Shown in pieces: positions 37,463 through 60,060 of a DNA stretch of 64,000 bases (position 1 is its first letter; every line of letters starts with the position of its first letter). The stretch is taken from the NCBI RefSeq assembly GCF_001625195.1, contig NC_054390.1, positions 10,017,222 to 10,081,221 on the forward strand, in the 5' to 3' direction. The translations under genes were made by a program, and so were the position numbers. Under the pieces are notes generated by a model that saw nothing but the letters and a program-made list of their open reading frames with translations, was not told the origin of the DNA and made no database searches. The DNA comes from Drechmeria coniospora (lineage: Eukaryota; Ascomycota; Sordariomycetes; Hypocreales; Ophiocordycipitaceae).

Positions 37463-38529
37463 TATTACGGAGTTACTAGGCAGCTGCTCTAGGGCTCTCA
37501 ATAATGTTTATTAAAAGACTTAAAGGAGGGAAAACTACTTAGCAACTAGGGCTTCTAGTTATATATGTTCTTCTTAGTAGGTCCCTTGGTTCCCTCCGTT
37601 CTCCTATATCGGGCTAAGCCCAATACTATAATATACCGTCTCGCTCTACCCGTTCGAAGTAAAGTCTAGCTGTAGCTGTAGCCAAACTACCCTTCCTTGG
37701 GCTGGCTTCCTAATCTAAAGCTCCCCCTAAAAATAAATTTTTTTTTTTTGGGTATTCGTCGGGTGCTTAGCGTATACGGCCTCCTCCCCGCGTCGTCCCC
37801 TATTAGGAGTTTACTAGTTGGCTAGGGCAACTAACTCTACCCTACCTTAGCTTTTCCTTAGGTATTTACCGGGTGCCTAAGGCAACTACTTTATCCTGCT
37901 TCGTCCCCTCCTTAGGTGTTCCCCGGGTGCCTAAGGCGCCTAGCGTTATCCTACTTTTCCCCCTTACCGCTCCCTCTATATTAACCTCTCCGTTCCCTTC
38001 CTATTATACTTTATTGTTTCTCTTTCCTTTAACTATTATACCTACTTATTTCTCTAGCTTCTTACTATACAATTTAATATTAATTCCTTTACCGCCTCCT
38101 ACCGCGCTTGCTCCTTTATTACTATTATTCCTCCCCCATAAGGTAGGTTGCTGCTTCCTTATTGGAGCCGTTCTGTATATCCTTTGGGTAGTTAGCTAAT
38201 AGGCTAGTGTTAATAGGAACTATTAATCTTACTCTTACTGCTATTGCTCCTCCCTTATAGAGGATTTATTTACCTTTTTCGTTACTACTGCTACTGCCAT
38301 TATATCTACCGCTGCGGGTACTCCCCCCCCCTCCCCCTGGATGCAGTTTGGGCCCGCGTTACGGCTATTATACCGATAAGTCGGACTATCGTTGTACCCT
38401 AGGCGACTTTTTAGTAGAGGGTAATTCCTCCGATAAGGAGTTTGCTCCTCCGGAGGAGGTATAGGGAATGTACCTCCCTTGTATTAATCGCCTTATTACT
38501 AGTGGCCGTAACTCTTACAATTTGTATGC
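37463..38529 (-). mobile_element. Truncated chromovirus end (element E): LTR plus 3' internal region
   Basis: A family-1 LTR (37463-37633, both ends RIP-altered) is followed by the inverted 3' part of a B-like element: the same pyrimidine leader (GTCTCGCTCTACCCGTTCGA), a T-run, and a decayed copy of the Cys-rich opposite-strand ORF between about 38284 and 38520. The rest of the element is missing. No TSD can be paired. Confidence 0.7.
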
Positions 38530-39678
38530 GCAAGAGGAGGGGGTAGTAGAAGTATATCGCACGGACCAGGGAATCAATCAAGCTGTTAGTAACAGCATAA
38601 GGGGTGCCAGTTAGTAACTGGGCAAGAGTGCACAATTGGTAGTACCGAATTATACAAACGAATGCGATTATTCTTCTAACTAAAGTGCAAGGGAAGTACG
38701 GCTATTTATGCCTACAGAGTAGTACCTTGTAGGTCCAGATTGTGGCTTGCGCAGTCACACCATAGTTTGATCGCCCGTTTGATCGCACAATGGTTTGATT
38801 GCCCATTTGGTCGCACAATGGTTTGATCGCCGTTTCGGTCGCACAATACTTTGATTGCCCGCAGTAGTACTGTGGGCTGGCAATAGCTAGTAGCGACTGG
38901 GAGAGCGGCAATTGTCATTCCGACCAATTGGCTCCTGTAGTAGGACTGGCTACTACGTATACAAGTTGTATTGTAGTAGTGAGTTGGCCGGCAGTAGTAC
39001 TGCCGTCAGTCGTTCCGAGTGGTAGTTCGGAGAAGTAGTATGTTGTATACTATTGGTCAACTCGGTATGCTTACTAATACTCGCAGTATAGTACAGCATC
39101 TTTACTAGTAGTAGTACTACTAGTAACAATAGGATAGTATCCTATTTGGGTAGTCTTACTAGTATAAATACCAGTATTTTAACAAGTAGTACCTTGTAGG
39201 TCCAGATTGTAGCTTGCGCAGTCACACTATAGTTTGATCGCCCGTTTGATCGCATAGTGGTTTGATCGCCCGTTTGATCGCACAGTGGTTTGATTGCCCG
39301 TTTGGTCGCACAATGGTTTAATCGCCGTTTCGGTCGCACAATGGTTTGATTGCCCGCAGTAGTACTGTAGGCTGGCAATAGCTAGTAGCGATTGGGAGAG
39401 CGGTAATTGTTATTCCGATCAATTGGCTCCTGTAGTCGACTGGCTACTACGTATACAAGTTGTATTGTAGTAGTGAGTTGGCCGGTAGTAGTACTGCCGT
39501 CAGTCGTTCCGAGTTATAGTTCGGAGAAGTAGTATGTTATATACTATTAGTCAACTCGATATACTTACTAATACTCGCAGTATAGTATAGCATCTTTACT
39601 AGTAGTAGTACTACTAGTAACAATAGGATAGTATCCTATTTGGGTAGTCTTACTAGTATAAATACCAGTATTTTAATA
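38530..39678 (-). repeat. Copia LTRs (family 5) in a tandem pair, related to element D
   Basis: 38718-39184 and 39185-39678 are two head-to-tail copies of the same ~470-490-bp sequence. Both end (plus strand) in TACTAGTATAAATACCAGTA, the inverted start of the D LTR. Each holds four ~28-bp subrepeats with TTTGATCGC / TTTGGTCGC. 38530-38717 is extra LTR-like sequence sharing CCAGTTAGTAACTGGGCA (inverted) with D. The right edge abuts reverse transcriptase of element C. Confidence 0.7.
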
Positions 39679-39936
39679 CTACCTACTCCTACTAGTTAAA
39701 GAAACGCTCTGCTTACTCTTAAGGGTACGCTAGTTTACTAAACTAAATGTATAAGTAGTATTCTACAAATTATATATAGCGCTAGGAGATAAACCGCTTA
39801 TAGTATTCCGTATACAATTTAGCCTATTCGAATAGTTAGTCTACCCCTTCGGCCTAGTTAGAGTACTAGCTTTATTCTAAAAATATATTAATAGGGTATT
39901 ATAGGATAAATTAAGGGAGTAAGTTATAGCCTATTT
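39679..39936 (+). pseudogene. Element C, segment 1: reverse transcriptase part
   Basis: Matches the B element at about 49475-49735 (the LVKETLRLLLG .. FTKLNV .. region) with many more C-to-T and G-to-A changes. It is interrupted exactly at TATTT (39932-39936) by element A and resumes at 46922. Confidence 0.85.
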
Positions 39937-40137
39937 TGTTATGGAGTCACTAGTACTACCAGTATCTAGTGGTCGGAAATAGTTGTTAAGAAACCTACGG
40001 AACACTAACTTAAGGTACGAGGCATTGGAGTACTTATACTCCAATGCCTGCTTAGTCATAGGATACGAGTTACGTGCGGTAGCGCGTGGCTCTATCCTAG
40101 GACATAGCTCTATTAGGCAAAGCCTAATATTATAATA
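39937..40137 (-). repeat. 3' LTR of element A (201 bp)
   Basis: TGTTATGGAGTC .. TATAATA on the plus strand; the last bases are CpA-to-TpA altered relative to the other LTR. Contains a hairpin with 11-bp arms (GCATTGGAGTA) and a 4-nt loop. Confidence 0.93.
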
Positions 40138-40185
40138 TATCCCCCTCCTTCCCTAATTCCTCCAGTAGTCCTCAATTAATCCAAT

Positions 40186-40217
<32 letters not shown>
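40138..40217 (-). other. Polypurine tract and A29 run of element A
   Basis: On the element's sense strand GGGAAGGAGGGGGATA lies directly against the 3' LTR, as expected for plus-strand priming. A run of 29 T (40189-40217, plus strand) precedes it; B has a shorter A-run at the equivalent place. Confidence 0.75.
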
Positions 40218-40219
<2 letters not shown>

Positions 40220-40402
40220 CTCTGTCCTGTTCGCGGGTGGTTGCCGGGCGCGTGTGTTGATGCTTCTGTAGCTAAGGTTCCGTTGCGGCCCCGTTGCGCT
40301 GCCCCTTTGTCCTGTTCGCGGGTGGTTGCCTCTGTCCTATTCGCGGGTGGTTGCCGGGCGCGTATGTTGACACTTCTGTAGCTAAGGTTCCGTTGCGGGC
40401 AA
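40218..40402. repeat. About 110-bp direct repeat in element A
   Basis: 40218-40290 and 40328-40402 are near-identical (TTCGCGGGTGGTTGCCGGGC core), with a partial third copy of the core at 40305-40328. Confidence 0.85.
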
Positions 40403-40584
40403 GTTGCGTGTTTCCTCTTTCCTCCTTCGTGATTGCCGCTTCCTTTAACGCCGCCGTTACAATTTCTTGCTTCCTCCCGCTCTCCCGCCTTCCTTACGGT
40501 ACGTGCCGTACCGGGGTTCTTGCTGCCGCTTGTTGCTAACTGCTTGTGTTAGTCGATTACTCACTTTCCCGTCGCCGCGCCGCT

Positions 40585-41640
40585 ATGTCTGCCGCCGCCG
40601 ATACTCCTCCTCCTCCTCCCAACAACAACAATGGCCCTGTTCGTAGCTACGCTTTGGACAAGGCGTCGGCCGTTCGGTCGATGGGCGGCTTTGCCGTCCA
40701 GGGAGACTCCTCGGACGAGGAGTATGACGTCCCTACCGCCGAGGCTTAGATGTGTTTGCCCTGCATTAAACGTCTGGTCCGCACCGGCGCTGCCTACTGC
40801 GAACGTGGTGGCGGCAATGGCTGCACCACCTGCGCCTCGGCTTGGCGTAGGTGCGAATAGATTCCGCACCTGCTAACGCCGCATCCGCGCCTCCGCCGCA
40901 TCGTTCGCGAGCTCGTTCTTACCGCCGCCAAAGGCGACCATATTGTTTCGGCTGCCCGTGCCAAGACGGCTGAATTGCCCGGCCGCCGCGTTCGCCTCTC
41001 CGCCCCGTTTCGCCAGCTTGGCGATACCTGGCGTGAGCTCTATAATGCCGCCAGGACGACTCCCGCCGACGTTGTCCCCGCTACTCCCCTTACCCCCGCC
41101 GGCGGTGCTGCCCGTGGTGCCGCCGCTGCGGCGCTGCCCTCGACTCCCGGCGACCCCATGGGTGCCCTGGTGCTGGCCTCGCAGGCCCTAACGCCGTTGC
41201 GCAGCGGTGGTGTGCAGCAGCAGTAGCTGCAGATGCTAGTGCGCGGTTTTGCTGGCGCCGTGCAAGGCCTGCGCGACTATCAGGGCGCGCAGGACGCCCG
41301 GCTCAACAGCTTTAAGCTGGTGCAACAGCAGCAGTCGGGCCTTATGGCCGCGATCCACGAGGAGCTGGTTGCTGCCCGCCGCGCCCGCGAGGCGGGTGCG
41401 CCTCGTTCGCCCCGCCCCCCCCGTCGGGGACTACGGTCCCCCTCCTCCCCCCGTCGCGCTGCCGCCGACCGCTCCGGCCCGTCTCGTCTCGCTGCCGCCT
41501 CGCCCTCTACCGCCCCCGGTGGAAGTCGCGCCCGCCGCGTCCTGTTTGCGGACGGCCTCCCAGCGCCGGCCCCGCCCCTTTACCTTTCGTCCTCAGTCGA
41601 GGATAACTCGAGCGAGTTGCCGCCTCCCCCCGGCCGTTAA
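40585..41640 (+). pseudogene. Cys-rich ORF on the strand opposite gag-pol (element A)
   Basis: From ATG 40585 (MSAAADTPPPPP) one frame of 352 codons reaches the stop at 41638-41640, broken only by three TAG codons (after 40744, after 40855, after 41223), all explicable as CAG-to-TAG changes. Order: Pro-rich start, a DSSDEEYD acidic motif, then a cysteine cluster C-x2-C-x11-C-x7-C-x2-C-x6-C, an Ala-rich helical middle, and a Ser/Pro/Arg-rich tail. The equivalent ORF exists in B (53643-52690, minus) and decayed in E. It is not a standard gag-pol component and the family is not recognised; a zinc-binding accessory protein is possible. GC content here is well above the rest of the element. Confidence 0.7.
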
Positions 41641-41849
41641 GGGCCCAACGTTTGTGCGCTACGGCGCTGAGACTTCGTCTTGCTTGTGGCGCCCCGATTG
41701 GGGCTGGGAATTCTTCGGGGCCGACCTAGGTCCTTCGTTTTAAGACGTTCCGGTTTGGGACGGAGGAGTTATTTGCGCCCCTTTCGGGCTGGTTGAATGC
41801 AAGCCGCGCTAACGCCATTATCGCAAGGAGACTAGTCCGTCGTAAGTAA

Positions 41850-44800
41850 GTGCGCTACCCTATTTTTGCTCGTAGTCTGCTAGTGCTTTGGTCTCCTGTA
41901 GATTTTCCAGCGGTTCCTACATAGGTTGGTTATGCCCGGCCCATTTAACCAGGATATTGCGGCGCTTACCTTGCCCTCTTGCGTTCTTTGCGGCTAAGAT
42001 TTCCTCTACAATATACTCTTCCTGCGGTACGCCGTCCTCGTCCTCTACCAAGAGCGGCCCTGGCTCTATATTCGTTAAGGCTTAACTAGGTAGCGGATCC
42101 GTTGCGGCCCGCTCTACTAGGTCCACGTAAAAGGTAGGGTGCATGCCTTGGGGGACATCCAGCGTAACAGTTAGGGGGGTCGGTACGGCCACGACCGTAT
42201 ACTTAGCTGTTACCTAGTCTAGCTTCTTGGATAGGCGTAGAGACTTTATATAGCGTAGACTTAGCTATACCTTATCCCCTACCTAGAAACGCTCCGCTAG
42301 GCGCCGGTGGGAGTTTGATTCTTCCTCTAAGCGTTACTGTACAAATGCAATTGCCGCCTGGGCCAGCTCGGTGCCTTCGCGCAGGCGCTGTACGAACGCT
42401 ACTGCTCGCCCTTTACCCGTAGTTGCGCTTAGGGTAGGAGCTTCCACCCGTTGTACTGCGTTAACTTCGTATCCCAATAGGAGACTGTTCGGGCTTATGC
42501 CGGTAACGGAAGAGTCCCTACCATTTAGCGCTAGCTGGCATACCGCTAGATGGTCCGGCCAGTCAAATTGGTCGAACGCTATAAAGGTGCATAGGATTGC
42601 TTAAACTTCTTGGTTCGCTCGTTCCGTGCCTCCGTCTGACTGCAGGTGATATACTGTAGACAGCCGCTGTTCGATCCCGACAATACGGTATAACGTTGCC
42701 CAGAACTGGCCGACCTAGTCTGATCCTCGGTCGGATATAATGTATTCCGGGAACCTACGGAAACGCTACTAGCACTCCTTGAACCGTTCGGCACATGCTT
42801 CTGCCGTTATAGACGTTATAGCTTCTAGCTGTACGTACTTGGACAGCCTGTCTATAAGTACCATTATGTACTGTGGCGCTTGTTTGTCTTGTGCGGGTAG
42901 CTCCGTTATAAAGTCTACGGAGATCTGTTTCCAATATCTGTCCGGCGGCTCAATTTGCTGTAGTAGGCCCTAGCGGCGCTGCCTACTCTTATGGCTGCAG
43001 TAGTAGTAGCAGTTCCGTACAAATCGCCCTACCGCTGCCGACATGTAATCCTAGTGGTAATTCCTCTTTAGCACTGCAAATGTAGCATTTCGTCCTGGGT
43101 GCCCCGAGATAGGGGAGTTATGGACTTAGTGGATAACGCGTGTAGTTAGCGGTTCCTACAATAGTAGCTACAGGCGCCCTCGGAACTGTAGCGCACCGTG
43201 CGCGTTAATGGTGCAGTCGGCTACCTATTCCCGCGTATCTGCTTCGTCCGGGAACTTACGGTCTCCGCAACGTATAGTATCTAGGCGTACTGCATACGTC
43301 TGGTCCTTAATGACTGCCTGGTCCTATAGCTCCTGCAAGCTGGTGTCGTGGAATAGCCGTAATCCTGGTAGTAGGTTGCTAGGCGGTTGCTCTACGGGCG
43401 CGCTGCGGGTACTCGGCGAACTTCCGAAATTGCTGATTGATACAGGTTGTAATACTTGCATAGTTCGGGGTTAGTGCTCTACGTCCTGCTGCCTGCGTAA
43501 TAGTACATCTGGCCGTTGCGCTTAAGATCCCGGCCTGTACTGTAAATGAAAGTTAAACTGCGAGAGCTTCTCAGCCCACTGTGCCTAGCGCTCCGAGATT
43601 TCCCGCGGTCGGGTGAAGTATTCCAGGTTCTTGTGGTCGGTTAGAACCGTAAACGGTGCGGACACCCCTCGCAGGTCTGCCTACCATGCCTTAAGGCAGC
43701 GCACTACTGCCAAGAGCTCCTTGTCGTGGATTGTATAATTGCGCTCTGCGGCCGTTAATTTTGCCGAATGGTATGCAACCGGGCGTAGGATGCCTTTCTC
43801 GTCTACCTGTAATAGGCATCCTCCTAAAGCCGTACCGGAACAATCTGCCTCTACGAACGTTAGTCTCTCTGCATCCTATTGTGCCAGGATCGGGTGCAAT
43901 ATAAATAGTCGCTTTAGTTCTTCGAACGCATTGTCCTTGTCGGTAGTCCAGCGGAACGGCTGCCCCTTGTAAGTAAGCTGGGATAGGGGCGCTGTTAATT
44001 CCGCGAACTGGGGGATAAATTCCCGGTAGAAGTTAGCAAACCCCAAGAAACTGTATACCCCTCGGACGGTCCTTGGTGCCTCCTAGTTGCGGATAGCGGC
44101 TATCTTTGCTGGGTCGGTCCGGATTTCTACTCCCGCCTGAACAATATAGCCCAGGTACTTAACTTCCTTAACTGCAAAGGCGCACTTGTCTAGGTCCAAG
44201 TATAGACCTGCTTTACGTAGGCGTTAAAGTACCCCTTTTACCTTCCGAATATAGTCCGCCTTAGAGCCGCTTGTATATACTAAGATATCGTCCAGAAAGG
44301 CCGTTACGAAGTTACCTAAATCAGTTCCGAGTACCCCGTTAATATAACGCTGGAATATTACGGGAGCGCCTGTAAGTCCGAACGGGCAGACCAGCCATTT
44401 AAATAAGCCGAAGCGGGTGCGGAATGCCGTAAGGTGCTTACTGCCGGGCGCAATACGGATCTTATGGAAGGCCGCCCGTACGTCGAGTTTCGTAAACCAG
44501 CGGGATCCTAACAGGGAGCGCAACGTTTCCTTTATCAGCGGTAGGGGATACCTATCCTGTATTGTAATCTTGTTCAGTGCGCGGTAATCTACGCAAAGGC
44601 GCCAACCCCCCCCCGGTTTCTTAGTTAGGAGGATCGGTACCGCTGCCGCTAAGGAGCTAGCACGTATCCACCCTTTGTCCAACAATTCGGTAATCTACTG
44701 TCGTACCTCCAACAACTGGTCCCGTAGCATATTGTACAATAGTCCCTACGGTAGCTCTGGGGGTTCCCCGTTGGGCCCGGTTCGCAGCTTGATGTAGTGG

Positions 44801-45400
44801 TCCCTTAGTCCCTGGTGCGGAGGAAGGCCGGAGGCCTGCGCCTTATCGAATAAGTCGGCAAACTCCTTTAGGTAGGCGGGCAGGTGTCCCTCCGTCCCGC
44901 TGGGCTCGGGGCTCGGTGCTACTTAGCGGAGTACTGCCGAGATCTCCATTAAGTTGGTAACTACCGCTTGGCTCTCCGGTTCGGCCATAACAAATAAAAC
45001 AGTTGCAATCTCGAGGTTATAGCTGCCGCGCTGCGGCCGCGTATCTGCTGCTTGTACCACCTGGCCCCCTGCCGCTCCAATTGTAAGGCGGCGTTCGGCT
45101 GCATGCAGGTCGACACCGCGGTATTCCATCCACGGTAGGCCCAGTATTGCATCTCGGCTAAGGCCTAGCACTATGTATAGTACCGCTGGAGACTCCCAGC
45201 CGTCTATATCGAGCGCAACTCGTACTATGTGCGAGATATATAGATATACCTCCGTTGGGCCGCCCCGGCGGCGTATTACTGCTACGGCTGTCTTTAACCG
45301 GCGCCGTACCGGTAGTAGAATAAGCTTAAGGCGCAGACTTTGGGCCGTACGTTCGCTAATTGCGCCATAACAATCGCAACCGCAATCGATTTAAACGTCT
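41850..45400 (-). pseudogene. Pol of element A: protease, RT, RNase H, integrase, chromodomain
   Basis: Open stretches include 45171-44923 (post-protease region) and 44685-44224 (reverse transcriptase: LTKKPGGGWRLCVDYRALNK, then AFLDDIL at about 44308-44281 with both catalytic Asp). RNase H has an ELLAVV-type motif near 43730. Integrase keeps SDRGSD (next codon TAG) and DGGTERANQE near 42645-42611. A chromodomain (EEYIVEEILAAK .. ILVKWAGH) lies about 42020-41900. Stops are TAG where CAG or TGG is expected. Pol is in the -1 frame relative to gag. Confidence 0.8.
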
Positions 45401-45590
45401 AAGAAACGGGTAGAATTTACAAGCGTTGGGATAAGGAACGGCGGCCTATCCAACCGCGCCTCGATATCCTGAAATTGCTTCCTCTAACGCTTGGTCCTCC
45501 CGCTTTGGTCCTTATCTGTACCGTCTTGCCCCCGCGCAAGACTTAGCTCGGGGGCGCTTCGTTTTCCGAGAACTGGTCTAAGGATTCCTC

Positions 45591-46640
45591 CTATGCGTTC
45601 TCCCTCTCTGTATTTACCCGATAAATGGATAGATTTTGTACCGGTTGCGCTGCGGGCCGCATTTTGCAGTCTTTAATAAAGTGCTGCTTGGATCCGCAGC
45701 GTAAACAAGCGCCCTCCTCCTTGCGCGCGTTAATTGTACTGCGGGGGACCCAAGTTGCACGCTGGCTTGACGACTGCCCTGGGCTGGTCCTTGTTCCTTG
45801 GGTTACTGGGCGACGGCGCCCTACAGTTGCTGCATTGATGCCCGTCATCCGTGCGTTACCGTCCTCGTCCGTTATGGGTTTTGTCGGGGCTGTTGCGCGG
45901 CCGTAGCGGTTCCGGTATTTCTCCTCCAAGCGGTACGATTCAATATCTACCGCAATGCTACGGTAAATATTAACGGCCGCCTCGTAACTGTCTCGTAGGA
46001 TATTGCGCCCAATACTGCTATCCCGCATGGTCTTATTAAGCGCGCGACGCAGCTTGACGAGTTTAATTTCGTCGGGCCAATTTATTCCCCTAGCCAACGC
46101 CAGCTTTTGTTCGAAGCGCACGTAGAATAAGGTAAATGCCTTATTGCTTGCTTGCTCTAGTTGTTCGAGCTCGGTCTGCGCTATCTCCATCCGATGAGGG
46201 TCGGCGAAAACGGATTCGAGGTAAGCCAAGAATTGTAACGGGTTGTACTGGTACGACGGCCCTGCTTCGAAGAAGGCTGTAACGCGGGACTGAATCTTGG
46301 GCGCTAAGCACTGCCAGACGAACATCCACTGGTCCTTGTCGGTACCGATAAACTCGCGGTCGGTAACTAGCTTGTGGGCCATAAGTATCTTCCAGGCTGT
46401 AAATGTGGTCTTATCTCCATCGTATGGTGCCCCTGTTGGTATTGGTTTACGTCGGACTTGGGGAAGTATTGCTGGGCCATTGACAGTTGAGGGGGTCCGT
46501 ACCGATCCCGACGTGGTACCGGGCTGCGCCTCCCGGGACGCTTAGTGCTGCATTACCGTAGCGATTTGCTGGCGTAACTGCTGGATTTCTGTAAACCAGT
46601 CGGGTGGTGGTTGGCTAGCGGTAGCATTTTGTTCGCTAGG
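45591..46640 (-). pseudogene. Gag of element A with CCHC zinc knuckle
   Basis: Open from 46382 to 45591 (263 codons), with the same frame extending upstream to about 46640 through one TAG. Capsid-type sequence (YNPLQFLAYLESVFADPHR, FYVRFEQKLALARG) is followed by an intact nucleocapsid knuckle, CLRCGSKQHFIKDC (C-x2-C-x4-H-x4-C). Best-preserved gag in the window. Confidence 0.82.
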
Positions 46641-46709
46641 TAGTGCGTTGTTGTCCTGTTGATCTATTGTTCAATAGTCTGCGGCCTACTGCTTGCCGTA
46701 ACGAAGGGA

Positions 46710-46720
46710 GGTTTCTTAAA
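46710..46720 (-). other. Self-priming site of element A
   Basis: Just inside the 5' LTR (minus sense) TTAAGAAACCT is the exact reverse complement of AGGTTTCTTAA within the LTR (46770-46780), 60 nt before the LTR end. This is the arrangement of Tf1/sushi elements, where the RNA 5' end folds back as primer. Confidence 0.65.
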
Positions 46721-46921
46721 TGTTATGGAGTCACTAGTACTACCAGTATCTAGTGGTCGGAAATAGTTGTTAAGAAACCTACGGAACACTAACTTAAGGT
46801 ACGAGGCATTGGAGTACTTATACTCCAATGCCTGCTTAGTCATAGGATACGAGTTACGTGCGGTAGCGCGTGGCTCTATCCTAGGACATAGCTCTATTAG
46901 GCAAAGCCTAATATCATAACA
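46721..46921 (-). repeat. 5' LTR of element A (201 bp)
   Basis: Identical to the 39937-40137 LTR except two transitions at its right end (on the plus strand, ATCATAACA here versus ATTATAATA). Confidence 0.93.
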
Positions 46922-47037
46922 TATTTAGATAATATCCTAATTTATACCTCCGGATCGAAGGCCAACTACCTTACTAAGGTTAAGGAAATCCTTAAGCAGC
47001 TCTAGATAGCCGGCCTATACCTAGATCTCGATAAGTA
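46922..47037 (+). pseudogene. Element C, segment 2: reverse transcriptase after the active site
   Basis: Continues directly from 39936: AGATAATATCC encodes the position of the RT active site (DNIL as in B), then TSGSKA and LYLDLDK. It ends at AAGTA (47033-47037), where element B is inserted. Confidence 0.85.
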
Positions 47038-47209
47038 TATTATGGTATCGGGCTTAGCCCGATATAGGAGAACGGAGGGAACCAAGGGACCCACTAGGAG
47101 GAACGCATACAACTAAAAGCCCTAGTTGCTAAGTAGTTTTCCTATTCTTTAAGTCTTTTAATAAATATTATTAAGAGTCCTAGAGCAGTCGCCTAGCGAC
47201 TCCGTAACA
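47038..47209 (+). repeat. 5' LTR of element B (172 bp)
   Basis: TATTATGGTATCGGGC .. CTCCGTAACA; the first TG has become TA. Contains the palindrome ATCGGGCTTAGCCCGAT (8-bp arms). Confidence 0.93.
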
Positions 47210-47210
47210 T

Positions 47211-47221
47211 TTAAAAGACTT
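47211..47221 (+). other. Self-priming site of element B
   Basis: TTAAAAGACTT is the exact reverse complement of AAGTCTTTTAA at 47151-47161 in the LTR, 59 nt before the LTR end; same geometry as in A with unrelated sequence. Confidence 0.65.
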
Positions 47222-47270
47222 TACTTATACCGGTTAGGAGGAAGGAAAAGCCTAACTATCGTAAGTCAAA

Positions 47271-48540
47271 ATGGATAAGGGAAAACCCAAAGAAATTAAC
47301 CTCCAGTAAGTTATGGAGGACTTTATGGCAAAAGTCCATACGGAGTTTGGCCGAATGTACGCCTAAATGGAAACGTACTCTATCTAAATCTTAGCTCTAC
47401 AGAAGAATGGGCAGCAACAGGCACAGCAGGACCCAGGGCACTTGTCGGCCCAGCCAATAGATACCTTAATAATCGACCCCTAGCAGGAACGGACCGGGAA
47501 CGAGTCGGGCATACTACGGGCCCGTATTAAACGCAAACCGATTCCGGTCGGGGACCCGTACGACGGCAACAAGGGCACCTTTGCAGCCTGGAAGTTCTGC
47601 ATAGACCGTAAGCTTCGGGTGGATAGGGACTTCATTGGGTCCGCCTAGGACTAATGGATCTTCGTTTAGCAAAACCTCTTGGCCAAAGTCCAGCAACAAG
47701 TTATAACGTACTTCGAGGAAGGCTCCCGCATCGGTTACGACCCGTTCCAATTTCTAACGTACCTCGAATCGGCTTACAGCAACCCCTACCGCTAGCGACT
47801 AGCGGTTGTCGAACTAAAGGATATTAGGCAAGGGACGTTAAAGTTATTCCTAGCGTTCCTTATACGCTTTAAAGAAAAGCTTATACTAGCAGGAGGGATG
47901 CATTGGCCTAGCGAGGTAAAACTTATAAAGCTCCGTATTGGGCTAACTAAGAGAATAAGGGACTATATCCTCTAGCGGGGGACTACAATGGATAACTATA
48001 ACGAGGCGGTCGATATATATAAACGAATTGCATCCGAAATGGAATCGCAATATATAGAGGATAAAATTAGGGACCGGAGCGGGCCCGGCCAGGGGACGGC
48101 CAGAGCGACCCCCCGACCCAATAAGGACGGCGATACCCTAATATTAGGGGTTAATACGGCGGGCTCTAGGGCTACGGCCGGGCCCAAAGCGGCTATAACT
48201 AGACCGATAACAAAAACAAACCGGGGCCAAGGCGGGCCCCAACAGCAGGCGAAATAGGTTATACGGGAAGAGAGAGACAGGCATAGGGCGGCCGGTATAT
48301 ATATCCGCTGCAGGGAGGGAGGCCACTATATCCAACAATACCTATAACGAGCCGTAATCCTATATACCCTAGGGATAAGTATTTAGGCCGCTTAGGGAGA
48401 AGAATAGGTTTATAAGGAATTAAAGACCAAGGAAAAGGAGGGAAATAAGGCGCCTTTAAGCTAAGTCTCGCATAAAGGTATAAAGGGTTTACAGGCAAGC
48501 GGACTATAAGGAACCAGGGGAATTAGGAGACCGAGTTTAA
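47271..48540 (+). pseudogene. Gag of element B
   Basis: ATG 47271 (MDKGKPKEINLQ) opens one frame through about 48540 with roughly a dozen TAG stops. Capsid-like block FQFLTYLESAYSNPYR aligns with the A gag. The zinc knuckle near 48300 has lost its last Cys (to Tyr). The open stretch 47988-48257 is part of this frame. Confidence 0.8.
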
Positions 48541-48599
48541 AAAGATTATACTAAGGATGGATAGACTACTCTTTCTTATTGCTATACTTATAAATTCTA

Positions 48600-51500
48600 T
48601 AAGATTCCTTAATGTTTAAATCGATAGCGGCTGTAACTGCTATAGGGCTATTAGCGAAAGGATAGCCTAATGCCTGCAACTTAAGCTTATCCCTCTTCCA
48701 ACAAAATGGCTACTCCAAACGGCTGTTATAACTTCTCGGCGGAATATAGGCAATACCCTTACCTACCCTACAATAACCAATATAGTCCGTACGACAATCG
48801 ATATAGATAGCTAGGAGAGCCTAGTACTCCTATACGTTATCCTAGGCCTAAGTTAAGACGCTATACTGGGTCTACTATAGATAGAATACCAACGGGTTAC
48901 CCTAAATGCAACAGATCGGACCCTTATAATTAGGGCAGTAGGTAACTAAATCGTATAAGCAAACGATATCCACCCTCCCAACGGGTCCCAGGAGGTATAC
49001 CTTACGCTAGTATAAACCTTTTTACGGAAACAACAGGGAGTACTAGTAGTAATAAGCTTGCAAGAAATAGCAACAAAACTACAAGAAACAGCGCTATAAG
49101 CACCCGGAAGTATAAATATAATAGCAATAGCCCTACCTACTCTCCCGGTAGCCCTCTAGGACTATACTAATCTCTTCGATAAGGAACAGGCCTTAGGCCT
49201 ACCACTACACTAGGGTTCCCAGGACTACTACATCCGACTACAACAAAACAACAAGGGAGAAATACTATAGCTACCCTAGGGCCTACTGTACAATTTACTA
49301 CAAGACTAACTACTTAAAGTCCGTAAATAAATTACAAACCTACTAAATAAGGGATAGATATAGGTAAGTTCGTTAGCAGCAGTAGTACTAATACTACTTA
49401 CCAAGAAAGAAAACGGAGGATAGAGGCTATATATAGACTACCGGGCCCTAAATAAGATTATACAACAGGATTGCTACTTATTCCCGCTAGTTAAAGAAAC
49501 GCTACGCTTGCTCTTAGGGGTACGCTAGTTTACTAAACTAAACGTACGAGCAGTATTCCATAAGTTATATATAGCGCCAGGAGACAAACCGCTTACGGTA
49601 TTCCGTATACAATTTAGTCTATTCGAATAGTTAGTCTACCCCTTCGGTCTAGCCGGAGCACTAGCTTTATTCCAAAGATATATTAATAGGGTATTATAGG
49701 ATAAATTAGGGGAGTAGGTTACAGCCTATCTAGACAATATCCTAATCTATACCTCCGGATCGAAGGCCGACTACCTTACTAAGGTTAGGGAAATCCTTAA
49801 GCGGCTCCGGGCAGCCGGTCTATACCTAGATCTCGATAAGTATGCATTCACAACAACAGAAGTTAAATACCTTGGGTTTATTATCCAAGTAGGCGTTAAG
49901 GTTAGGCCCGACCTAGCGAAAATCGCTGCAATTTAAGAATAGCAACTACCTACTAAGGTAAGGGGGATTAGGAGCTTCCTAGGTTTTGCGAACTTCTACC
50001 GTAAATTTATTCCCAATTTTACAAGCCTTACGGAACTACTTACAGCCCTTACAGGGAGGGGTATACTATTTCGCTAGGGACCCGAAGAAGACGTAGCCTT
50101 CTAATCCCTTAAGCGGGCCTTTTCGTTATACCCAATCCTAGTACAATAGGACCTAGATAGGAAGACTCTTATTAAGACCAATTGCTTAAGTAAGGCACTA
50201 GGCGGATGCCTCTTGCAAATCGATAGCAAGGGGGTCCTACGACCAGTAGCCTACCACTTAGCCAAACTTACCCTAGCAGAAAGGAATTATATAATCTACG
50301 ATAAGGAACTCCTAGCAGTTATTAGCTGCCTTAAGGCGTAGTCGGTAGAACTATAAGGCGTTACGGAACTATTTACTATTCTAACGGACTATAAGAACCT
50401 TAAATACTTTACCAAACCGCGGGAGATATTGGAACGATAGGTACGGTAGGCGGAAGTCCTTGCAAACTTTAATTACTCGCTATAGTACAGACTAGGCTTA
50501 TAAGTATAACGGCCGGATGCGCTCTTGCGTTAGGAACAGGACGAGGAGGACGCACTACGCCTAGGACAAATACTTCGGCCGGTATTAATCTCTATACTGC
50601 AGGAGGCGCCCAAAGGCCAACCCGCGCAAGAAGGTCCCAACGCCTAGGACATCCAGGATACAGCAATTACAAATACGGGAATAAATCGGGCGAATATAGG
50701 GATAGACCGGGCCCGGGCCGGCTGCAAAGTACCAAGCGCCTAAGATATAATAGCTACAAATACGGGGGCGGACCGGGCCCGTCTAGAGACGGAAGGGGGA
50801 TAAGGAGCTATTAACATATCCTAACTACTCCCAGCAGTACAGGAACAGACAGGGAAGGAGATACTATTTTTACAGAATACGCTAGCCGGCCGACTGCTCT
50901 TCCCAGAACCCTACCTATAGGAATTATAGGACCAGGCGTTACAAAACAATACAATATACAAAGCCCGATAACAAGCAGTTGCAACAGGCGCACGGAAATT
51001 CCTAGCAGAAGCAAAGACAAAAGAACAAACGGCTAATTGTACTATTAGTACCTATAGCGCAATATACTATAGGGGACGCCTATAGTTACTAGCCTAGGAA
51101 CTACTAATAACGCAAATAATACAACAGGTATACGAATTACCTATATCGGGCCACTCGAATCGAAACGGAATATTCCGGGCACTTTAGCAAGACTTCTACT
51201 AGAATAGTATATTACAGAACGTAGTACGGTATATTCGGAATTACTACTACTACCGGAGCTGCAAGAGCCGTCTATAGAGATAGGGACTCCTATAACCAAT
51301 CCCCCCGCCAGACCGTTATTAGAAGTAGATATCGATCGACTTTATAACCGACCTACCAGTACAGAACGATAAGGACCCCCAATTCTTAATAGTTATTACA
51401 AACCGCCTCTCTAAATTCATTTAACTAGAGGCAATAACTACAATAAGTACAAAGGCTTATGCAGAACGGTTTAAGACCTATTGGTAGCAATTTAGGGGTT

Positions 51501-52420
51501 TTCCTACCTAAATTATAACGGATTAGGGATTAGACTAGCTTAGTAAGTTCTGGATATCCCTATACTCCCTTATTGGTACGGAATAACTCTTATTAACGTT
51601 ATACTACCCCTAGACGGATAGGGGCACTAAGAGGGCAAATCAGGAAATTTAAGCCACCCTTCGGATCCTAATCTCGTTTAAGCAATTCGACTGGCCGGCC
51701 CACCTAGCCGCCTACCAGCTTACCCTAAACAATAGGGAGTCTTTAGTTACAGGAGTTAGCCCAAACAAGCTATTATTGGGCTACGAAATCGGTACAATAC
51801 CTAGGGTAGAGGACGACTAAGCAAGCATAACAATACCAAAAGGGAGGGCTATTGCTTTCCTATAACACCTAAGGGAAGGAACAGAAATTACATAAGCGGC
51901 TATTACCTTTATACAACAACGCTTACACAAGTCGGTAGTAGCTTTAGGTCGCCCAGTAGAGAAGTTCTAAGTAGGTAATCAGGTCTAGCTTAGCCTTAGA
52001 TATATTAAAACCAACAGGCCATACAGAAAGCTAGACTAGGTAGCTTCTAAGTTTACGGTACTAGTAGTACTAATACTACTTACAGTAATACTAGATATTC
52101 CTTAGGGCTTACACCCTACCTTCTATATAGACCTTATCGAAAGGGCAGTAAACGACCCCTTGCCCAGTTAGGTAGTACGGGATTCGGAGCTAGGCCTACT
52201 GCTAGTCCAAGACGAGGACGGTACCTTGCAAGAGGAATACTAGGTCGAACGCATCCTTGCAACAAGGGGGGCCTAAGGCTAAAGGGGATAACGCAATGCC
52301 CTTATAAAATAGCTAGGTTACAAACAACCAACCTAGGAACCGATAGAGGCTCTAGTACAAACGGAAGCCCTAGAGGAATTTATATAGCAATAGGGAGATC
52401 CCTATACAAACGGCAGAGCG
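48600..52420 (+). pseudogene. Pol of element B: RT, RNase H, integrase, chromodomain
   Basis: A single frame with dozens of in-frame stops, overwhelmingly TAG, and no evident frameshift from RT onward. RT: RLYIDYRALNK near 49430 and AYLDNIL near 49725 (second Asp altered to Asn). RNase H: ERNYIIYDKELLAVISC near 50280-50330. Integrase: DFITDLPVQNDKDPQ near 51340, ITD..LD near 51520, TDRGTKRANQE near 51620. Chromodomain: VERILATRGA .. NALIK .. EPIEALVQTEAL, 52232-52380. Offset -1 from gag, as in A. Confidence 0.8.
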
Positions 52421-52689
52421 CGGGTAAGCCGCAAAACGAAACGTAAAATTTCGACTATACCGAAGGAAAAAACCGGCCCTAGAGCGCCCCCAATAAGGGC
52501 CCGACCCAATACTACTACTACGGATATACGCTAGCCGTACTACTTAGACTTATCGGTCTCCGTATCCTCCTTGCTCTTGTCCTCCTTGGTATCCTCCTTG
52601 GGGAGGGTCTTAAAACTATCCGTTGCGGTACTTAGGCGGGGGCGGGACGTTATTAAGGGGGGCGGGGGCGGGGGTATAAAACGGAGGCG

Positions 52690-53643
52690 CTAGGCGACTT
52701 AGGCAATGTAAGGGGCGGAGGCAACAGGGCGGTACAATAGAGTTGCGTTGTCTATGCAGGACGGGCGCGACCTGCTACTATTGCGGGCGATGCAGGGAGT
52801 AGAGGGGGCAGGATAGCGCGACGAGGGGGAACTATCCGCGCGAGACTCGCGCGACTTACAGATATTGCAGCGCATCTTGGCCAAGGTAGCTACTAACTCG
52901 GCGCTAACGCTCTCCTGCGCCTGCTAACGGCGGGCGAGACCGCGCACGTTACTCTGGATGCCCGTTAGGGCCCGGGCCACGCCCTAAGCAAATACGCCGA
53001 GCTGCGCGCTCGGTACGCTACCGGAACGGCCACTAGCCCGAGTCGGGGTTAAGGCGTTAGCGGCGAGGACGAGGGCGCGGTTCGGGTTGTCGTCGTCGGC
53101 AGCGGCGGGGGGGGAGACAACACCCGGTACGGGGGCGAGGGTGTAGGCAGGGCGTACGGGGGCGGGCTCTATCTCGGCTAGGGCCAGGGTGCGAGCCCAA
53201 ACCCGGCCTAGGGCTAGAAATTCGGGCGAGAGGACGGCGCGAGCGCCCGGTACGGTTCCAACCTTAGGGCGGGCCTCAACCAGGATGTAGACGTTGCGCT
53301 AGGCGTAAGTACAAAGGTCGCGCAGGGCGCAATACAGCTAAGGGCGCGCGGCGAATAAATGCAGTACCTAGACGCATTTAGCATACGCGCGCGCGTACGC
53401 ACGGCAACTAGCACTACAGCCCGGTACGCAGTCGTTGCGGCCGCTGGTAATAAGGCGATTGACGCAAGGGAGGCACATCCCGCGCACCTCCTCCGGAGGT
53501 GCGAACTCCTCGTCGGAGGAATTACCCTCCACTAAGTATTCGCCCAGGGCGCGGCGATAGTCCGACTTGTCGGCATAATAGCCGTAATGCGGGCCCGAAC
53601 CGTATCCGGGGGGGGGGGGGGGAGTACCTGCGGCGGTAGACAT
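52690..53643 (-). pseudogene. Cys-rich ORF on the strand opposite gag-pol (element B)
   Basis: ATG 53643 (MSTAAGTPPPPPGYGSG) starts a frame open to 53368 and continuing in the same frame through TAG stops to about 52690, including an open block at 52884-52699. It shares with the A ORF the Pro-rich start, NSSDEEF acidic motif and CLPC cluster (C-x2-C-x11-C-x3-C-x3-C-x9-C). Conservation between two diverged elements indicates past protein-level selection. Function unknown. Confidence 0.68.
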
Positions 53644-54307
53644 AATAGCAGCAGTAGCGGCAACGGAAAGGTAAACAAATCCTCCACAAGGGAGGAGCAA
53701 TAGCAGCAAGAGTAGGATTAACAGTTCTTATTATTACCAGCTTATTAGCTAACGGCCCGAAGGACATACGGAACGGCCCCGACGAGGAAGCAGCAACCCA
53801 CCTTACGGGGGAGGAACGACAGCAATAGAGGAGCAAGTACAACAGGAGGCAGCAAAAGAGTTAACAACAAATCGTACGGCAAGAAGCTAGAAAACGGGTA
53901 GGTACAATAGTTAAAGGAAAGAGGAACAACAAAGTACAATAGGAAGGGAACGGAGAGGGCAATATAGAGAGAGTAGCAAGGGGGAAAAGTAGGGTAACGC
54001 CAGGCGCCTTAGGCACCCGGGGAACACCCAAGGAGGGGACGAAGCGGGGTGGAGTTAGTTGCCTTAGGCACCCGGTAAACACCCAAGGAGGGGCTAAGGC
54101 GGGGTGGAGTTAGTCGCTCCGGGCAACCAGTAAGCTCCCGACAGGGGATAACGCGGGGAGGAGGCCGCGCGCACTCAGTACCCAATGAATACCCGAAAAA
54201 AAAAAAAAATTTAGGGGGAGCTACAGATTGGGAGGCCAGCCTAGGGAAGGGTAGGTTGGCTACGGCTACAGCTAGACTTTACTTCGAACGGGTAGAGCGA
54301 GACGGTA

Positions 54308-54479
54308 TATTATGGTATCGGGCTTAGCCCGATATAGGAGAACGGAGGGAACCAAGGGACCCACTAGGAGGAACGCATACAACTAGAAGCCCTAGTTGCC
54401 AAGTAGTTTTCCTATCCTTCAAGTCTTTTAATAAATATCATTGAGAGTCCTAGAGCAGTCGCCTAGCGACTCCGTAACA
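54308..54479 (+). repeat. 3' LTR of element B (172 bp)
   Basis: Matches 47038-47209 with about seven transitions and no indels. Confidence 0.93.
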
Positions 54480-56937
54480 AAGTATATATTTATAATAACA
54501 GAAGTTAAATACCTTAGGTTTATTATCTAAGCAGGCGTTAAGGTTAGGCCCGACCTAATAAAAATTACTATAATTTAAGAATAGTAACTACCTACTAAGG
54601 TAAGGGGGATCTAAAGCTTCCTAGGTTTTGTAAACTTCTACTATAAATTTATTTCAAATTTTACAAGCCTTACGGAACTACTTACAGCCCTTATAGGGAG
54701 GGGTATACTATTTTGCTAGGAACCTAAAGAAGATATAGCCTTTTAATCCCTTAAGCGTACCTTTTCGTTATACCTAATCCTAATATAATAGGACCTAGAT
54801 AGGAAGACCCTCGTTAAGACCAATTACTTAGGCAAGGCACTAAGCGGATACCTCTTGCAAATTAATAGTAAGGGGGTCCTATAACTAATAGCCTACTACT
54901 TAGCTAAACTTATACTAATAGAAAGGAATTATACAATTTACAATAAGGAACTTCTAGTAGTTATTAGCTATCTTAAGGTATAGTTAGTAGACCTATAAAG
55001 TATTATAGAACTATTTACTATTTTAACGGACTATAAGAACCTTAAATACTTTACTAAACTACAGGAGATATTAGAATAATAGGTATAGTAGGCAGAAGCC
55101 CTTACAAACTTTAATTACTTACTATAGTACAGACCGGGCTTATAAGTACAACGGCCGGATATACTCTTATATTAGGAATAGGATAAGGAGGATATACTAT
55201 ACCTAGGATAAATACTTCGGCCGGTATTAATCTCTATATTACAAGAGGCGCCTAGAGGCCAACCCGTACAAGAAGGCCCTAACGCCTAGGATATAGTAAT
55301 TATAAATATAGGGATAGATCGGGCAAATATAGAGACAGACCGGGCCTAGGCCGGCTATAAAATACTAAGCGTTTAAGATATAACGGCTATAAATATAGGG
55401 GTAGACCGGGCCCGTCCAAAGACGGAAGGGGAATAAAGAGCTATTAATATATCCTAACTACTCCTAGTAGTATAGGGATAAATAGGAAAAAAGATATTAT
55501 TTCCATAGGATATACTAGCCGGCCGACTGCTCTTTCCGGAACCCTACCTATAGGAATTATAGGATTAGGCATTACAAAACAATATAATATATAAAGCTTA
55601 ACGATAAGTAGTTGCAATAGGTATACGGAAATTCCTAGTAAAAGTAAAGACAAAAGAACAAAAAGCTAATTATACTATTAGTACCTATAGTACAATATAC
55701 TATAGGGGACGCCTATAGTTACTAGCCTAGGAACTACTAATAACGTAAATAATACAATAGGTATACGAATTACCTATATCGGGCTACCCTAGTCGAAACG
55801 GAATATTCCGGGCACTTTAGCGGGACTTCCACTAAGATAGTATATTATAGGATATAGTACGGTATATTTAGAATTACTACTACTACTAAAGCTATAAAAG
55901 CCATTTATAGAGATAGGGACTCCTATAACTAATCCCCCCGCTAGACCGTTATTGGAAGCAGATATTAATTAACTTTATAACCGACCTACTAGTATAGAAC
56001 GATAAGGACCCCTAATTCTTAATAGTTATTATAGACTGTCTCTCTAAATTTATTTAACTAAAGGCAATAACAATAATAAGTACAAAGGCTTATACGGAAC
56101 GGTTTAAGACCTATTAGTAGCAATTTAGGGGTTTTCCCGCCTAAATTATAACGGATTAGGGATTAGACTAGCTTAGTAAGTCCTAGATATCCCTATACTC
56201 CCTTATTGGTACGGAATAACTCCTATTAATTTTATATTACCCCTAAACGGATAGGGACACTAAGAGGGTAAATTAGGAAATTTAAGCTACCCTACGGATC
56301 CTAATCTTATTTAAGCAATTCGACTAGCCGGCCTACCTAGCTACCTACTAGCTTACCCTAAATAATAGGAAGTCTTTAGTTATAGGAGTTAGCCTAAACA
56401 AGCTATTATTAGGCTACGAAATCGGTATAATACCTAGGATAAAGGACGACTAGGCAAGCGTAATAATACCAAAAGGGAGGGCTATTGCTTTCCTATAATA
56501 CCTAAGGGAAGGAATAGAAATTATATAAGCGGCTATTACCTTTATACAATAACGCTTATATAAGTCGGTAGTAGCTTTAGGCCGCCTAGTAGAAAAGTTC
56601 TAGGTAGGTAATAAGGTCTAGCTTAGCCTTAGATATATTAAAACCAACAGGCTATATAGGAAGCTAGACTAGGTAGCTTTTAAGTTTACGGTACTAGCGG
56701 TACTAATACTACTTACAGTAATACTAGATATTCCTTAGGGCTTATACCCTACCTTCTATATAGACCTTATTAAAAGGGTAGTAAACGACCCCTTACCTAG
56801 TTTGGTAGTATAGGATTTAGAGCCAGGCCTACTATTAGTCTAAGATAAGGATAGTACCTTACAAAAGGAATACTAAGTCGAATGCATTCTTACAATAAGG
56901 GGGGCCTAAGGCTAAGGGGGATAACGTAATACCCTTA
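54480..56937 (+). pseudogene. Element C, segment 3: RT end, RNase H, integrase, chromodomain start
   Basis: Collinear with B from about 49850 to 52310 but with far more CpA-to-TpA changes; few open stretches exceed 60 codons. It ends inside the chromodomain region where the copia LTR of element D begins at 56938. Confidence 0.85.
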
Positions 56938-59798: not shown

Positions 59799-60060
59799 TG
59801 GTCGGCACCTTCAACGGTGCCTCGGTCGGCACCTTCAACGGTGCCTCGGTCGGCACCTTCCCCGGTGCCTCGGTCGGCACCTTCATCGGTGCCTCGGTCG
59901 GCACCTTCATCAGTGCCTCGGTCGGCACCTTCCCCGGTGCCTCGGTCGGCACCTTCATCGGTACCTCGGTCGGCACCTTCATCGGTACCTCGGTCGGCAC
60001 CTTCAACGGTGCCTCGGTCGGCACCTTTACCGGTGCCTCGGTCGGTACCCAGATCGGTAC
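59799..60060 (+). repeat. 24-bp minisatellite inside D pol, 11 copies
   Basis: Units repeat every 24 bp from 59801 and encode SAPSTVPR variants in the gag-pol frame, lying between protease and integrase. The opposite strand is also open, giving a spurious repeat ORF. Confidence 0.92.

What the first reader, a model, noticed from the sequence alone, without database searches (positions are those of the whole stretch)
40585..41640. Conserved Cys-rich ORF antisense to gag-pol in chromoviruses
Elements A and B, which differ in LTR sequence, and the fragment E each carry at the 3' end a convergent ORF with the same order: Pro-rich start, SSDEE motif, CLPC-led cysteine cluster, Ala-rich region. In A the 352-codon frame is broken only by three CAG-to-TAG changes. 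Such an ORF is outside the standard Ty3/gypsy coding plan. It could be an accessory or regulatory protein, or a captured host gene.
Basis: partly seen in the sequence, partly recalled or inferred. Interest (0 to 1): 0.75.

Follow-up and report, generated by a model that had tools for sequence, protein, structure and literature searches.

The report
Retrotransposon antisense gene, editable stop codon
Jumping genes of the nematode-killing fungus Drechmeria coniospora carry a backward-facing cysteine-rich gene interrupted by the same stop codon in 51 of 53 copies read, sitting in a predicted RNA hairpin; the fungus's own RNA-editing machinery would likely change that stop to tryptophan, so the element's extra protein would be completed only when the host edits its messages.

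Summary
The ORF is real. The window lies in Drechmeria coniospora (Sordariomycetes). Element A is a Ty3/gypsy insertion with 5-bp target duplications; its antisense ORF lies between pol and the 3' LTR. Genome-wide, 90 stretches resemble it; of 60 with a matched reverse transcriptase within 6 kb, 51 show the same convergent layout. Families A and B share about 38% identity and six cysteines.

Codon 92 is a stop in 51 of 53 copies read, and CAG or TGG in none, although homology in the same frame continues past it. It sits in the 9-nt loop of a 7-9-bp stem predicted in both families. This resembles fungal premature-stop editing sites (UAG to UGG by Tad2-Tad3-Ame1), and the host has an Ame1-like gene with the diagnostic Met-Val pair. 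Ten public gene models all avoid codon 92, as reported for such genes.

Best reading: a conserved accessory protein predicted to be licensed by host A-to-I editing (confidence 0.6). No RNA was tested. Main counter-evidence: RIP alone made a pol codon TAG in 20 of 22 copies. Antisense extra genes (Boty brtn) and stop editing are each known; I found no report of the combination.

The parts
39932..46926 (-). Element A: Ty3/gypsy LTR element in sense on the minus strand, with 5-bp TATTT target duplications at 39932-39936 and 46922-46926
39937..40137 (-). 3' LTR of element A (begins TGTTATGG)
   Evidence: 2 differences in 204 aligned positions to the other LTR, both T against C
46721..46921 (-). 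5' LTR of element A (ends CATAACA)
40138..40155 (-). Purine-rich stretch in element sense next to the 3' LTR, probable polypurine tract
   Evidence: read in sequence; inferred role
40585..41640 (+). Antisense ORF of element A, 351 residues with TAG at codons 55, 92 and 214
40753..40854 (+). Six-cysteine cluster CX2C-X11-C-X7-C-X2-C-X6-C (residues 57-90), predicted to bind zinc
   Evidence: six cysteines invariant in the four sequences of alignment A1, two of family A and two of B; zinc binding inferred
40858..40860 (+). Codon 92, conserved in-frame TAG: predicted A-to-I edited stop (UAG to UGG, Trp)
   Evidence: stop in 51 of 53 copies read; editing inferred
40849..40871 (+). Predicted hairpin AGGTGCG [AATAGATTC] CGCACCT with the UAG in its loop
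44140..44622 (-). Reverse transcriptase (PF00078) of element A
   Evidence: E 2.6e-35
47038..54479 (+). Element B: Ty3/gypsy LTR element in sense on the plus strand, LTRs 47038-47209 and 54308-54479, AAGTA target duplications at 47033-47037 and 54480-54484
49403..49885 (+). Reverse transcriptase (PF00078) of element B
   Evidence: E 6.9e-22, C2:10066624-10067106
52540..53643 (-). Antisense ORF of element B (367 codons before the final stop, several internal stops)
53368..53370 (-). Codon 92 of element B antisense ORF: TAG in predicted hairpin AAATGCG [TCTAGGTAC] TGCATTT
38324..38506 (+). Fragment E: 5' part of a B-type antisense ORF, ends before codon 92

Best explanation
Retrotransposons of Drechmeria coniospora carry, antisense between pol and the 3' LTR, a conserved cysteine-rich gene whose frame is interrupted at codon 92 by a conserved TAG, which is predicted to be changed to a tryptophan codon by the host's A-to-I mRNA editing, so that a full-length, probably regulatory protein would be made only where editing is active. 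Shown: the ORF, its position, its conservation in two element families, the conserved stop, same-frame homology beyond it, and an Ame1-like host gene with the diagnostic residues. Predicted from sequence: in the antisense mRNA the UAG lies in the loop of a 7-9-bp stem, with U before the target A and G after it, like U33-A34 of an anticodon loop. Inferred: Tad2-Tad3-Ame1 (or another loop-specific deaminase) edits UAG to UIG; without editing a 91-residue protein ends one residue after the sixth cysteine; with editing a protein of about 350-370 residues is made, which probably acts in the nucleus on the element's own expression or on host silencing. Inferred: because the reverse-transcribed RNA is the opposite strand, editing of the antisense mRNA would not be copied into DNA, so transposition cannot erase the switch. 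The other stops are taken as RIP decay after insertion.
For: Conserved stop: codon 92 is TAG or TAA in 51 of 53 copies, never CAG, CAA or TGG; every other column listed with two or more stops also has sense codons. L012, with 17 CAG/CAA/TGG codons intact in its frame, has TAG92 as its only stop. Two proteins of the second strain (RJ55) agree: P0007 keeps 15 Q and 1 W in the part after codon 92, and if its first 15 residues are this stretch in another frame, as the match to L012 indicates, codon 92 can only be TAG, TCG or TTG; P0006 keeps 8 Q and 1 W there, and its model resumes exactly at codon 93.

Same-frame homology: A against B (L012, L033) is 49% identical over 55-91 and 35% over 93-129 in frame, against 24% and 14-22% in the other two sense frames.

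Hairpin: same geometry in A and B. 45 of 53 copies keep an uninterrupted stem of at least 7 pairs, G-U allowed. On 27 distinct sequences of the first set 95.8% of cells pair (slid controls 24-50%), covariation score 0.641 (slid 0.10-0.26; 0 of 500 shuffles reach it). Synonymous shuffles of nine copies reach the observed Watson-Crick stem with P 0.0026 (L012) to 0.024 in seven, 0.010 for L033. z=-4.45 for L012.

Host and rules: fungal sites favour U at -1, A/G at +1, hairpin loops, often UAG. F. culmorum P0098 has MV500-501, S531, D589, H629, the positions published for Ame1; D. coniospora shows MV in that column, its two paralogues RN and LD.

Annotation: ten of ten public models avoid codon 92, as described for PUK1-like genes and CHE1.
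Against: No RNA data: editing, antisense transcription and protein are untested. No sexual stage has been seen in D. coniospora (passages of PMC4792172). RIP can make near-universal stops: pol Trp309 is TAG in 20 of 22 distinct A/B copies read, and codon 102 is a stop in 28 of 32 B-type copies as printed. The coding signal beyond codon 92 is modest: A/B differences show no third-position excess over 130-182 (27, 28, 26), one antisense frame is as similar as the sense frame over 55-91 (49%) and nearly so over 130-182 (34% against 36%), and the transversion test is not significant in B. RIP can produce paired changes in a palindromic stem, which inflates covariation among decayed copies. In 'pairs with a change on both sides' was reached by 30 of 500 shuffles and 'further pair types' by 500 of 500. 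With any loop geometry allowed the shuffle P is 0.013-0.027. The B hairpin alone is weak (z -1.39 and -1.67). MFE folds of 63 bases pair the target A in 10 of 33 copies, mostly decayed ones. The preferred A/G at +3 is not met (U). Only two families carry the site, so few independent lineages speak.
Confidence: 0.6

Rival explanations
1. Codon 92 was an ordinary Trp (TGG) or Gln (CAG) codon and is a hotspot of repeat-induced point mutation; the hairpin is incidental.
For: RIP-type stops are common in these copies; pol Trp309 is TAG in 20 of 22 copies read and codon 102 is a stop in 28 of 32 B-type copies. A TGG-to-TAG or CAG-to-TAG change is RIP-like.
Against: TAG92 is present where RIP is low: L012 (1 stop, 17 intact CAG/CAA/TGG), whose own element keeps the pol hotspot as TGG (L001); L033, whose element also keeps it (L084); and probably the RJ55 copies behind P0006 and P0007. 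No copy of 53 has a sense ancestor at 92. RIP predicts no shared hairpin geometry; the GG/CC to AA/TT difference between the families is not in the CpA context.
Confidence: 0.13
2. The stop is conserved but is passed by programmed translational readthrough or an amber suppressor tRNA, not by RNA editing.
For: A conserved in-frame UAG with same-frame homology on both sides also fits readthrough.
Against: Known readthrough signals lie downstream of the stop (recalled); here the UAG sits inside the loop, with U at -1 and G at +1, the geometry of fungal editing sites. An Ame1-like gene is present. Suppressor tRNAs were not searched.
Confidence: 0.12
3. The TAG is removed by splicing: either it is a 3' splice site, or it lies in an intron, as public gene models draw it.
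For: Nine of ten public D. coniospora models appear to splice over codon 92, and three (P0003, P0006, P0010) resume exactly at codon 93; the tenth (P0007) reads it in another frame.
Against: The models use about six different joins, and all ten lose at least one of the six cysteines. No GT[AG]NGT donor in the stretch of L012 scanned; one GTACGT at codon 81 in L033 and L034, about 30 bases before the TAG; no CT[AG]A[CT] branch motif in the 45 bases before the TAG in the three copies scanned. The supposed intron keeps six cysteines and 49% amino-acid identity between families.
Confidence: 0.07
4. The stop is the true end: the product is the 91-residue cysteine protein, and the rest is a second gene or no longer coding.
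For: The stop falls one residue after the sixth cysteine in both families. Codon-position differences give little coding signal over 130-182.
Against: Downstream codons 93-351 lean synonymous for transversions in family A (43 N, 24 S, P=0.03), though not significantly in B (7 N, 4 S, P=0.27); the frame matches between families in one alignment, and no in-frame ATG near the stop is shared.
Confidence: 0.08

Closest known systems
Boty-like elements of Botrytis with antisense gene brtn (Zhao et al. 2011, not held; known here only through passages of PMC8365987 and PMC4227169 and parts of PMC7264820)
   Same: Chromodomain Ty3/gypsy-type element of a filamentous ascomycete with an additional antisense gene.
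   Different: No protein outside D. coniospora was found with these queries, so homology to BRTN is not shown; a stop or editing site in brtn is not described in the passages I read; a review states that genome-wide editing was not identified in B. cinerea apothecia.
Plant aORF-3R elements (Grande gene23, RIRE2, Retand, PvRetro13)
   Same: Antisense ORF between pol and 3' LTR, kept across copies; Grande's product is nuclear with its own promoter (review PMC7264820, parts 1 and 2 of 3).
   Different: Different hosts; no recoded stop described in the parts of the review read.
Fungal premature-stop-correction (PSC) genes: PUK1, AMD1, FgRID, FgAMA1, CHE1, zao-1/2
   Same: In-frame UAG inside a continuing coding frame, U at -1, hairpin loop, gene models with false introns or starts; CHE1 and ZAO also switch between short and full-length zinc-finger proteins.
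   Different: Those are host genes with editing measured in RNA; here the gene belongs to a retrotransposon and editing is predicted only.
Zn2Cys6 (GAL4-type) zinc cluster proteins
   Same: Six cysteines with CX2C ... CX2CX6C spacing (family pattern recalled).
   Different: X11 between the second and third cysteine and no such Pfam match.

Membership tests
Ty3/gypsy chromovirus | Two LTRs with short target-site duplication | tested here: met
   A: 201-bp LTRs, TATTT; B: 172-bp LTRs, AAGTA
Ty3/gypsy chromovirus | Reverse transcriptase of the RVT_1 family between the LTRs | tested here: met
   PF00078 E 2.6e-35 for A and 6.9e-22 for B in the genome search; piece of A E 8.3e-27
Ty3/gypsy chromovirus | Chromodomain at the C-terminal end of integrase | tested here: inconclusive
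   A piece with X at the stop matches PF00385 over the whole profile, E 0.0027, 18 bits, below the 25.1-bit cut-off; pieces cut at the stop gave nothing
LTR element with antisense extra ORF (brtn, aORF-3R) | ORF antisense between pol and 3' LTR | tested here: met
   Window A and B; 51 of 60 stretches with a matched RT within 6 kb
LTR element with antisense extra ORF (brtn, aORF-3R) | Sequence homology to BRTN | not tested
   BRTN sequence not available here; protein searches returned only D. coniospora
LTR element with antisense extra ORF (brtn, aORF-3R) | Own antisense transcript and promoter | not testable with these tools
   no RNA data
Fungal A-to-I premature-stop-correction site | In-frame UAG conserved within a continuing coding frame | tested here: met
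   stop 51 of 53; same-frame homology beyond it, with the limits told under evidence against
Fungal A-to-I premature-stop-correction site | U at -1 and A/G at +1 | tested here: met
   49 of 53 copies TAG; preference from PMC11156358
Fungal A-to-I premature-stop-correction site | A/G at +3 | tested here: not met
   +3 is U in the copies listed; described as favoured, not required
Fungal A-to-I premature-stop-correction site | Target A in a hairpin loop | tested here: met
   predicted in both families; MFE folds pair the A in 10 of 33 copies; not probed in RNA
Fungal A-to-I premature-stop-correction site | Host has editing-competent Ame1 (MV at 500-501) | tested here: met
   residues present in one of three DUF726 genes; activity not tested
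Fungal A-to-I premature-stop-correction site | A-to-G in cDNA, stage dependent | not testable with these tools
   no RNA data; no sexual stage observed
Zn2Cys6 fungal zinc cluster (PF00172) | CX2CX6CX5-12CX2CX6-8C (recalled) and Pfam match | tested here: not met
   spacing X11 at the second gap; no PF00172 match listed at E up to 10

The most novel reading that the evidence does not exclude
A retrotransposon has placed a host-edited stop codon in its accessory gene, so that the host's A-to-I editing, known to act mainly during sexual reproduction, is the licence for the full-length protein at the same stage at which RIP attacks the element. The antisense orientation is part of the design: the edited mRNA is not the reverse-transcribed strand, so the stop survives every round of transposition.
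Probability: 0.5. Interest if true: 0.88.

Novelty: new variant of a known kind. Interest (0 to 1): 0.73.

Why it matters
If true, it would be a mobile element whose gene depends on the host's developmental RNA editing. That links three fungal systems studied apart: retrotransposon accessory genes, A-to-I stop editing and RIP. It would suggest a job for antisense extra genes of LTR elements, whose functions are unknown, and a simple reason why such a gene lies antisense. It also predicts editing in a species with no observed sexual stage, and warns that gene models of such ORFs are wrong. The test is a single cDNA base.

Tried and rejected
Captured host gene: no Pfam family over cut-off, no PDB match below E 4.7, no cross-species protein found. 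Weak RING-type matches to the cysteine part (PF17121, E 0.0056-0.13, below cut-off) were not used.

A third family 'C' was first suspected from 24-30% matches; the codon-92 context shows that those read are decayed B copies.

A second conserved stop in pol (column 309) was examined as a possible editing site and rejected as RIP: L001 and L084 keep TGG, 20 of 22 have TAG. Of the 16 stretches fetched for this, L093 did not align and L094 and L095 (more distant elements, both TAG) were left out of the 22; one search lists 101 stretches in all. Pol column 94 is similar.

Splicing signals. OLD-type deaminase (PF14441) not found, but no control genome rang, so absence is not shown. DNA methylase matches (PF00145) had no inside stops. 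Five kinase stretches with a TAG were read; in four the TAG lies at or near the edge of the matched stretch, one is told under Noticed in passing.

Literature on editing in fungal transposable elements: nothing found in the listings; 'transpos' does not occur in the main text of PMC11087585 or PMC4817773. The library lacks most subscription papers and preprints.

Full report
Where it is. The window belongs to a 32.8-Mb genome with three large contigs. Its antisense ORF matches proteins named from Drechmeria coniospora, whose listed contig lengths (12,542,233; 10,204,147; 9,751,215; 100,297) equal those of this genome. D. coniospora is an endoparasite of nematodes in Ophiocordycipitaceae; the genome paper reports active RIP, retrotransposons enriched in centromeres and chromosome ends, a MAT1-1-1 gene and no observed sexual stage (passages of PMC4792172).

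The element. Element A (39932-46926) has 201-bp LTRs, a TATTT target duplication and pol on the minus strand. Element B (47033-54484) has 172-bp LTRs and an AAGTA duplication, and runs the other way. A chromodomain is likely but below the Pfam cut-off.

The antisense ORF. A's frame (40585-41640) has internal stops only at codons 55, 92 and 214; B's homologue is 33.8% identical in the window. In four little-decayed copies (two A, two B) B is 38% identical to A and all six cysteines are invariant. Pol of the B copies read is 53-63% identical to L001 pol, so the antisense ORF appears to evolve faster than pol. The genome has 90 matching stretches. Of 60 with a matched RT within 6 kb, 51 lie in the same convergent layout, 9 otherwise; 30 of 90 have none.

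Is it coding? RIP makes transitions, so transversions were counted in 15 A and 8 B copies: family A 46 N and 25 S (expected N fraction 0.76, P=0.023), family B 10 N and 6 S (P=0.16); before codon 92 alone the numbers are too few (3 N, 1 S; 3 N, 2 S). Between families the in-frame identity exceeds the other sense frames over 55-91 and 93-129, but one antisense frame equals it over 55-91 (49%) and nearly does over 130-182, and codon-position differences in L012/L033 show a clear third-position excess only over 55-91 (12, 14, 24). Taken together I read it as coding, with modest support beyond codon 92.

The stop that is not decay. In the 33 copies of the first set covering it, codon 92 is TAG in 30, TAA in 2 and TAT in 1; every other column listed with two or more stops also has sense codons. 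Adding 20 further copies gives 49 TAG, 2 TAA, 1 TAT and one frameshifted copy that still holds the TAG. These 53 were read out of 73 stretches covering the codon. L012 has TAG92 as its only stop, with 17 CAG/CAA/TGG codons intact; its element keeps Trp309 of pol as TGG (L001), although its pol has stops just outside the 554-codon open stretch. The product of per-copy stop rates under independent RIP over 33 copies is 10^-7.8, but copies are related, so this is only a guide.

A control that cuts the other way. Pol codon 309 is TAG in 20 of 22 distinct A/B copies read and TGG in two; antisense codon 102 is a stop in 28 of 32 B-type copies. So RIP can make near-universal stops, and universality alone does not prove a selected stop. 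What separates codon 92 is its presence in the least decayed copies: L012, L033 (which has RIP-type stops of its own but whose element keeps TGG309; L084), and two RJ55 copies judged from their gene models.

The hairpin. Family A: AGGTGCG-AATAGATTC-CGCACCT; family B: AAATGCG-TCTAGGTAC-CGCATTT. Geometry is identical (2 nt, UAG, 4 nt in a 9-nt loop). Nine copies were tested by synonymous shuffling: seven reach the observed Watson-Crick stem with P 0.0026-0.024 (L012 0.0026, window A 0.008, L033 0.010); in L034 and window B the innermost pair is G-U, so only the G-U-allowing count applies (P 0.026 and 0.016); with any loop geometry P is 0.013-0.027. On 27 distinct sequences 95.8% of cells pair, 6 of 8 pairs show double changes and the covariation score is 0.641 against 0.10-0.26 for slid versions; two of the five shuffle measures do not stand out (30 and 500 of 500). 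Some double changes among decayed copies can come from RIP striking both arms of a palindrome; the GG/CC to AA/TT difference between families is outside the CpA context. Fold z-scores are -4.45 and -3.80 (L012, short and long), -4.51 (window A sequence) and -1.39 and -1.67 (L033); MFE folds pair the target A in 10 of 33 copies. If the outermost loop bases stack as a mismatch, the inner seven nucleotides have U second and the target A third, the places of U33 and A34 in an anticodon loop (inference).

Why editing. In Sordariomycetes, Tad2-Tad3 with Ame1 edits mRNA adenosines, mostly in hairpin loops with U at -1, which often recodes UAG to UGG (PMC11156358 parts 1 and 2 of 3; PMC4817773 passages; PMC11087585 passages and section 17). 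PUK1-like genes and CHE1 carry premature stops that gene predictors hide with false introns or other starts. The ten public D. coniospora models of this ORF all avoid codon 92: nine appear to splice over it, with about six different joins, and one reads it in another frame. Ame1 is a DUF726 protein in which Met-Val 500-501 is essential. The host has three DUF726 genes; one has MV in the matching column, and F. culmorum P0098 shows MV, S, D and H at exactly the published positions 500-501, 531, 589 and 629. In D. coniospora the Ser is Gly, which fits the report that the catalytic triad is not needed. An OLD-type deaminase (PMC12754623 part 1 of 3) is an alternative editor, not found here (inconclusive).

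What the protein might do. Unedited, it would end one residue after the sixth cysteine. Edited, it adds a region with a conserved Trp149, Ala/Pro-rich linker, Gln-rich stretch (A) and, in B, an acidic tail. By analogy with nuclear plant antisense proteins a nuclear regulator is likely; this is inference. The zinc cluster resembles but does not meet Zn2Cys6. No structure could be predicted.

Novelty. Antisense extra genes (brtn in Boty) and stop editing are both in print. Searches for editing in fungal transposable elements found none (listings only). I therefore call it a new variant of a known kind, confidence 0.6 in the mechanism.

Noticed in passing
L056 (G000:C2:5229900-5230700), kinase domain: A host protein kinase has TAG exactly at the Trp position of the DVWSLG-type motif (normally conserved, recalled) in an otherwise open stretch: a candidate host premature-stop-correction gene. 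Its local fold does not put the A in a hairpin loop.
   Followed up: partly
pol codon 309 of elements A and B (PWGPLY motif), e.g. L001, L084: RIP hotspot: TGG kept in 2 of 22 distinct copies read, TAG in 20.
   Followed up: yes
L012, L013, L014, L016, L018 (family A copies): A sub-type of the antisense ORF lacks about 50 residues (267-315) but keeps the C-terminal end.
   Followed up: no
window 39679-39934: Matches 49474-49729 inside element B pol (88%): element A lies beside, and may have inserted into, an older pol fragment.
   Followed up: no
window 1-17000: GC-rich part with tandem arrays of 22-bp (14959-15375), 68-bp (6959-7432) and about 111-bp (13686-14020) units.
   Followed up: no
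window 59743-60102: Tandem array of 24-bp units in the AT-rich part.
   Followed up: no
window 38718-39676: Tandem duplication with a step of about 495 bp (main segments 94-97% identical), near the 3' LTR of element A.
   Followed up: no
window 56940-57603 and 63337-64000: Direct repeat of at least 664 bp, 95% identical, running off the window end: possibly LTRs of a further element.
   Followed up: no
L047 / P0012: The Ame1-like protein of D. coniospora has Gly at the catalytic Ser position, unlike Fusarium; two Hirsutella proteins (P0017, P0026) share this.
   Followed up: partly
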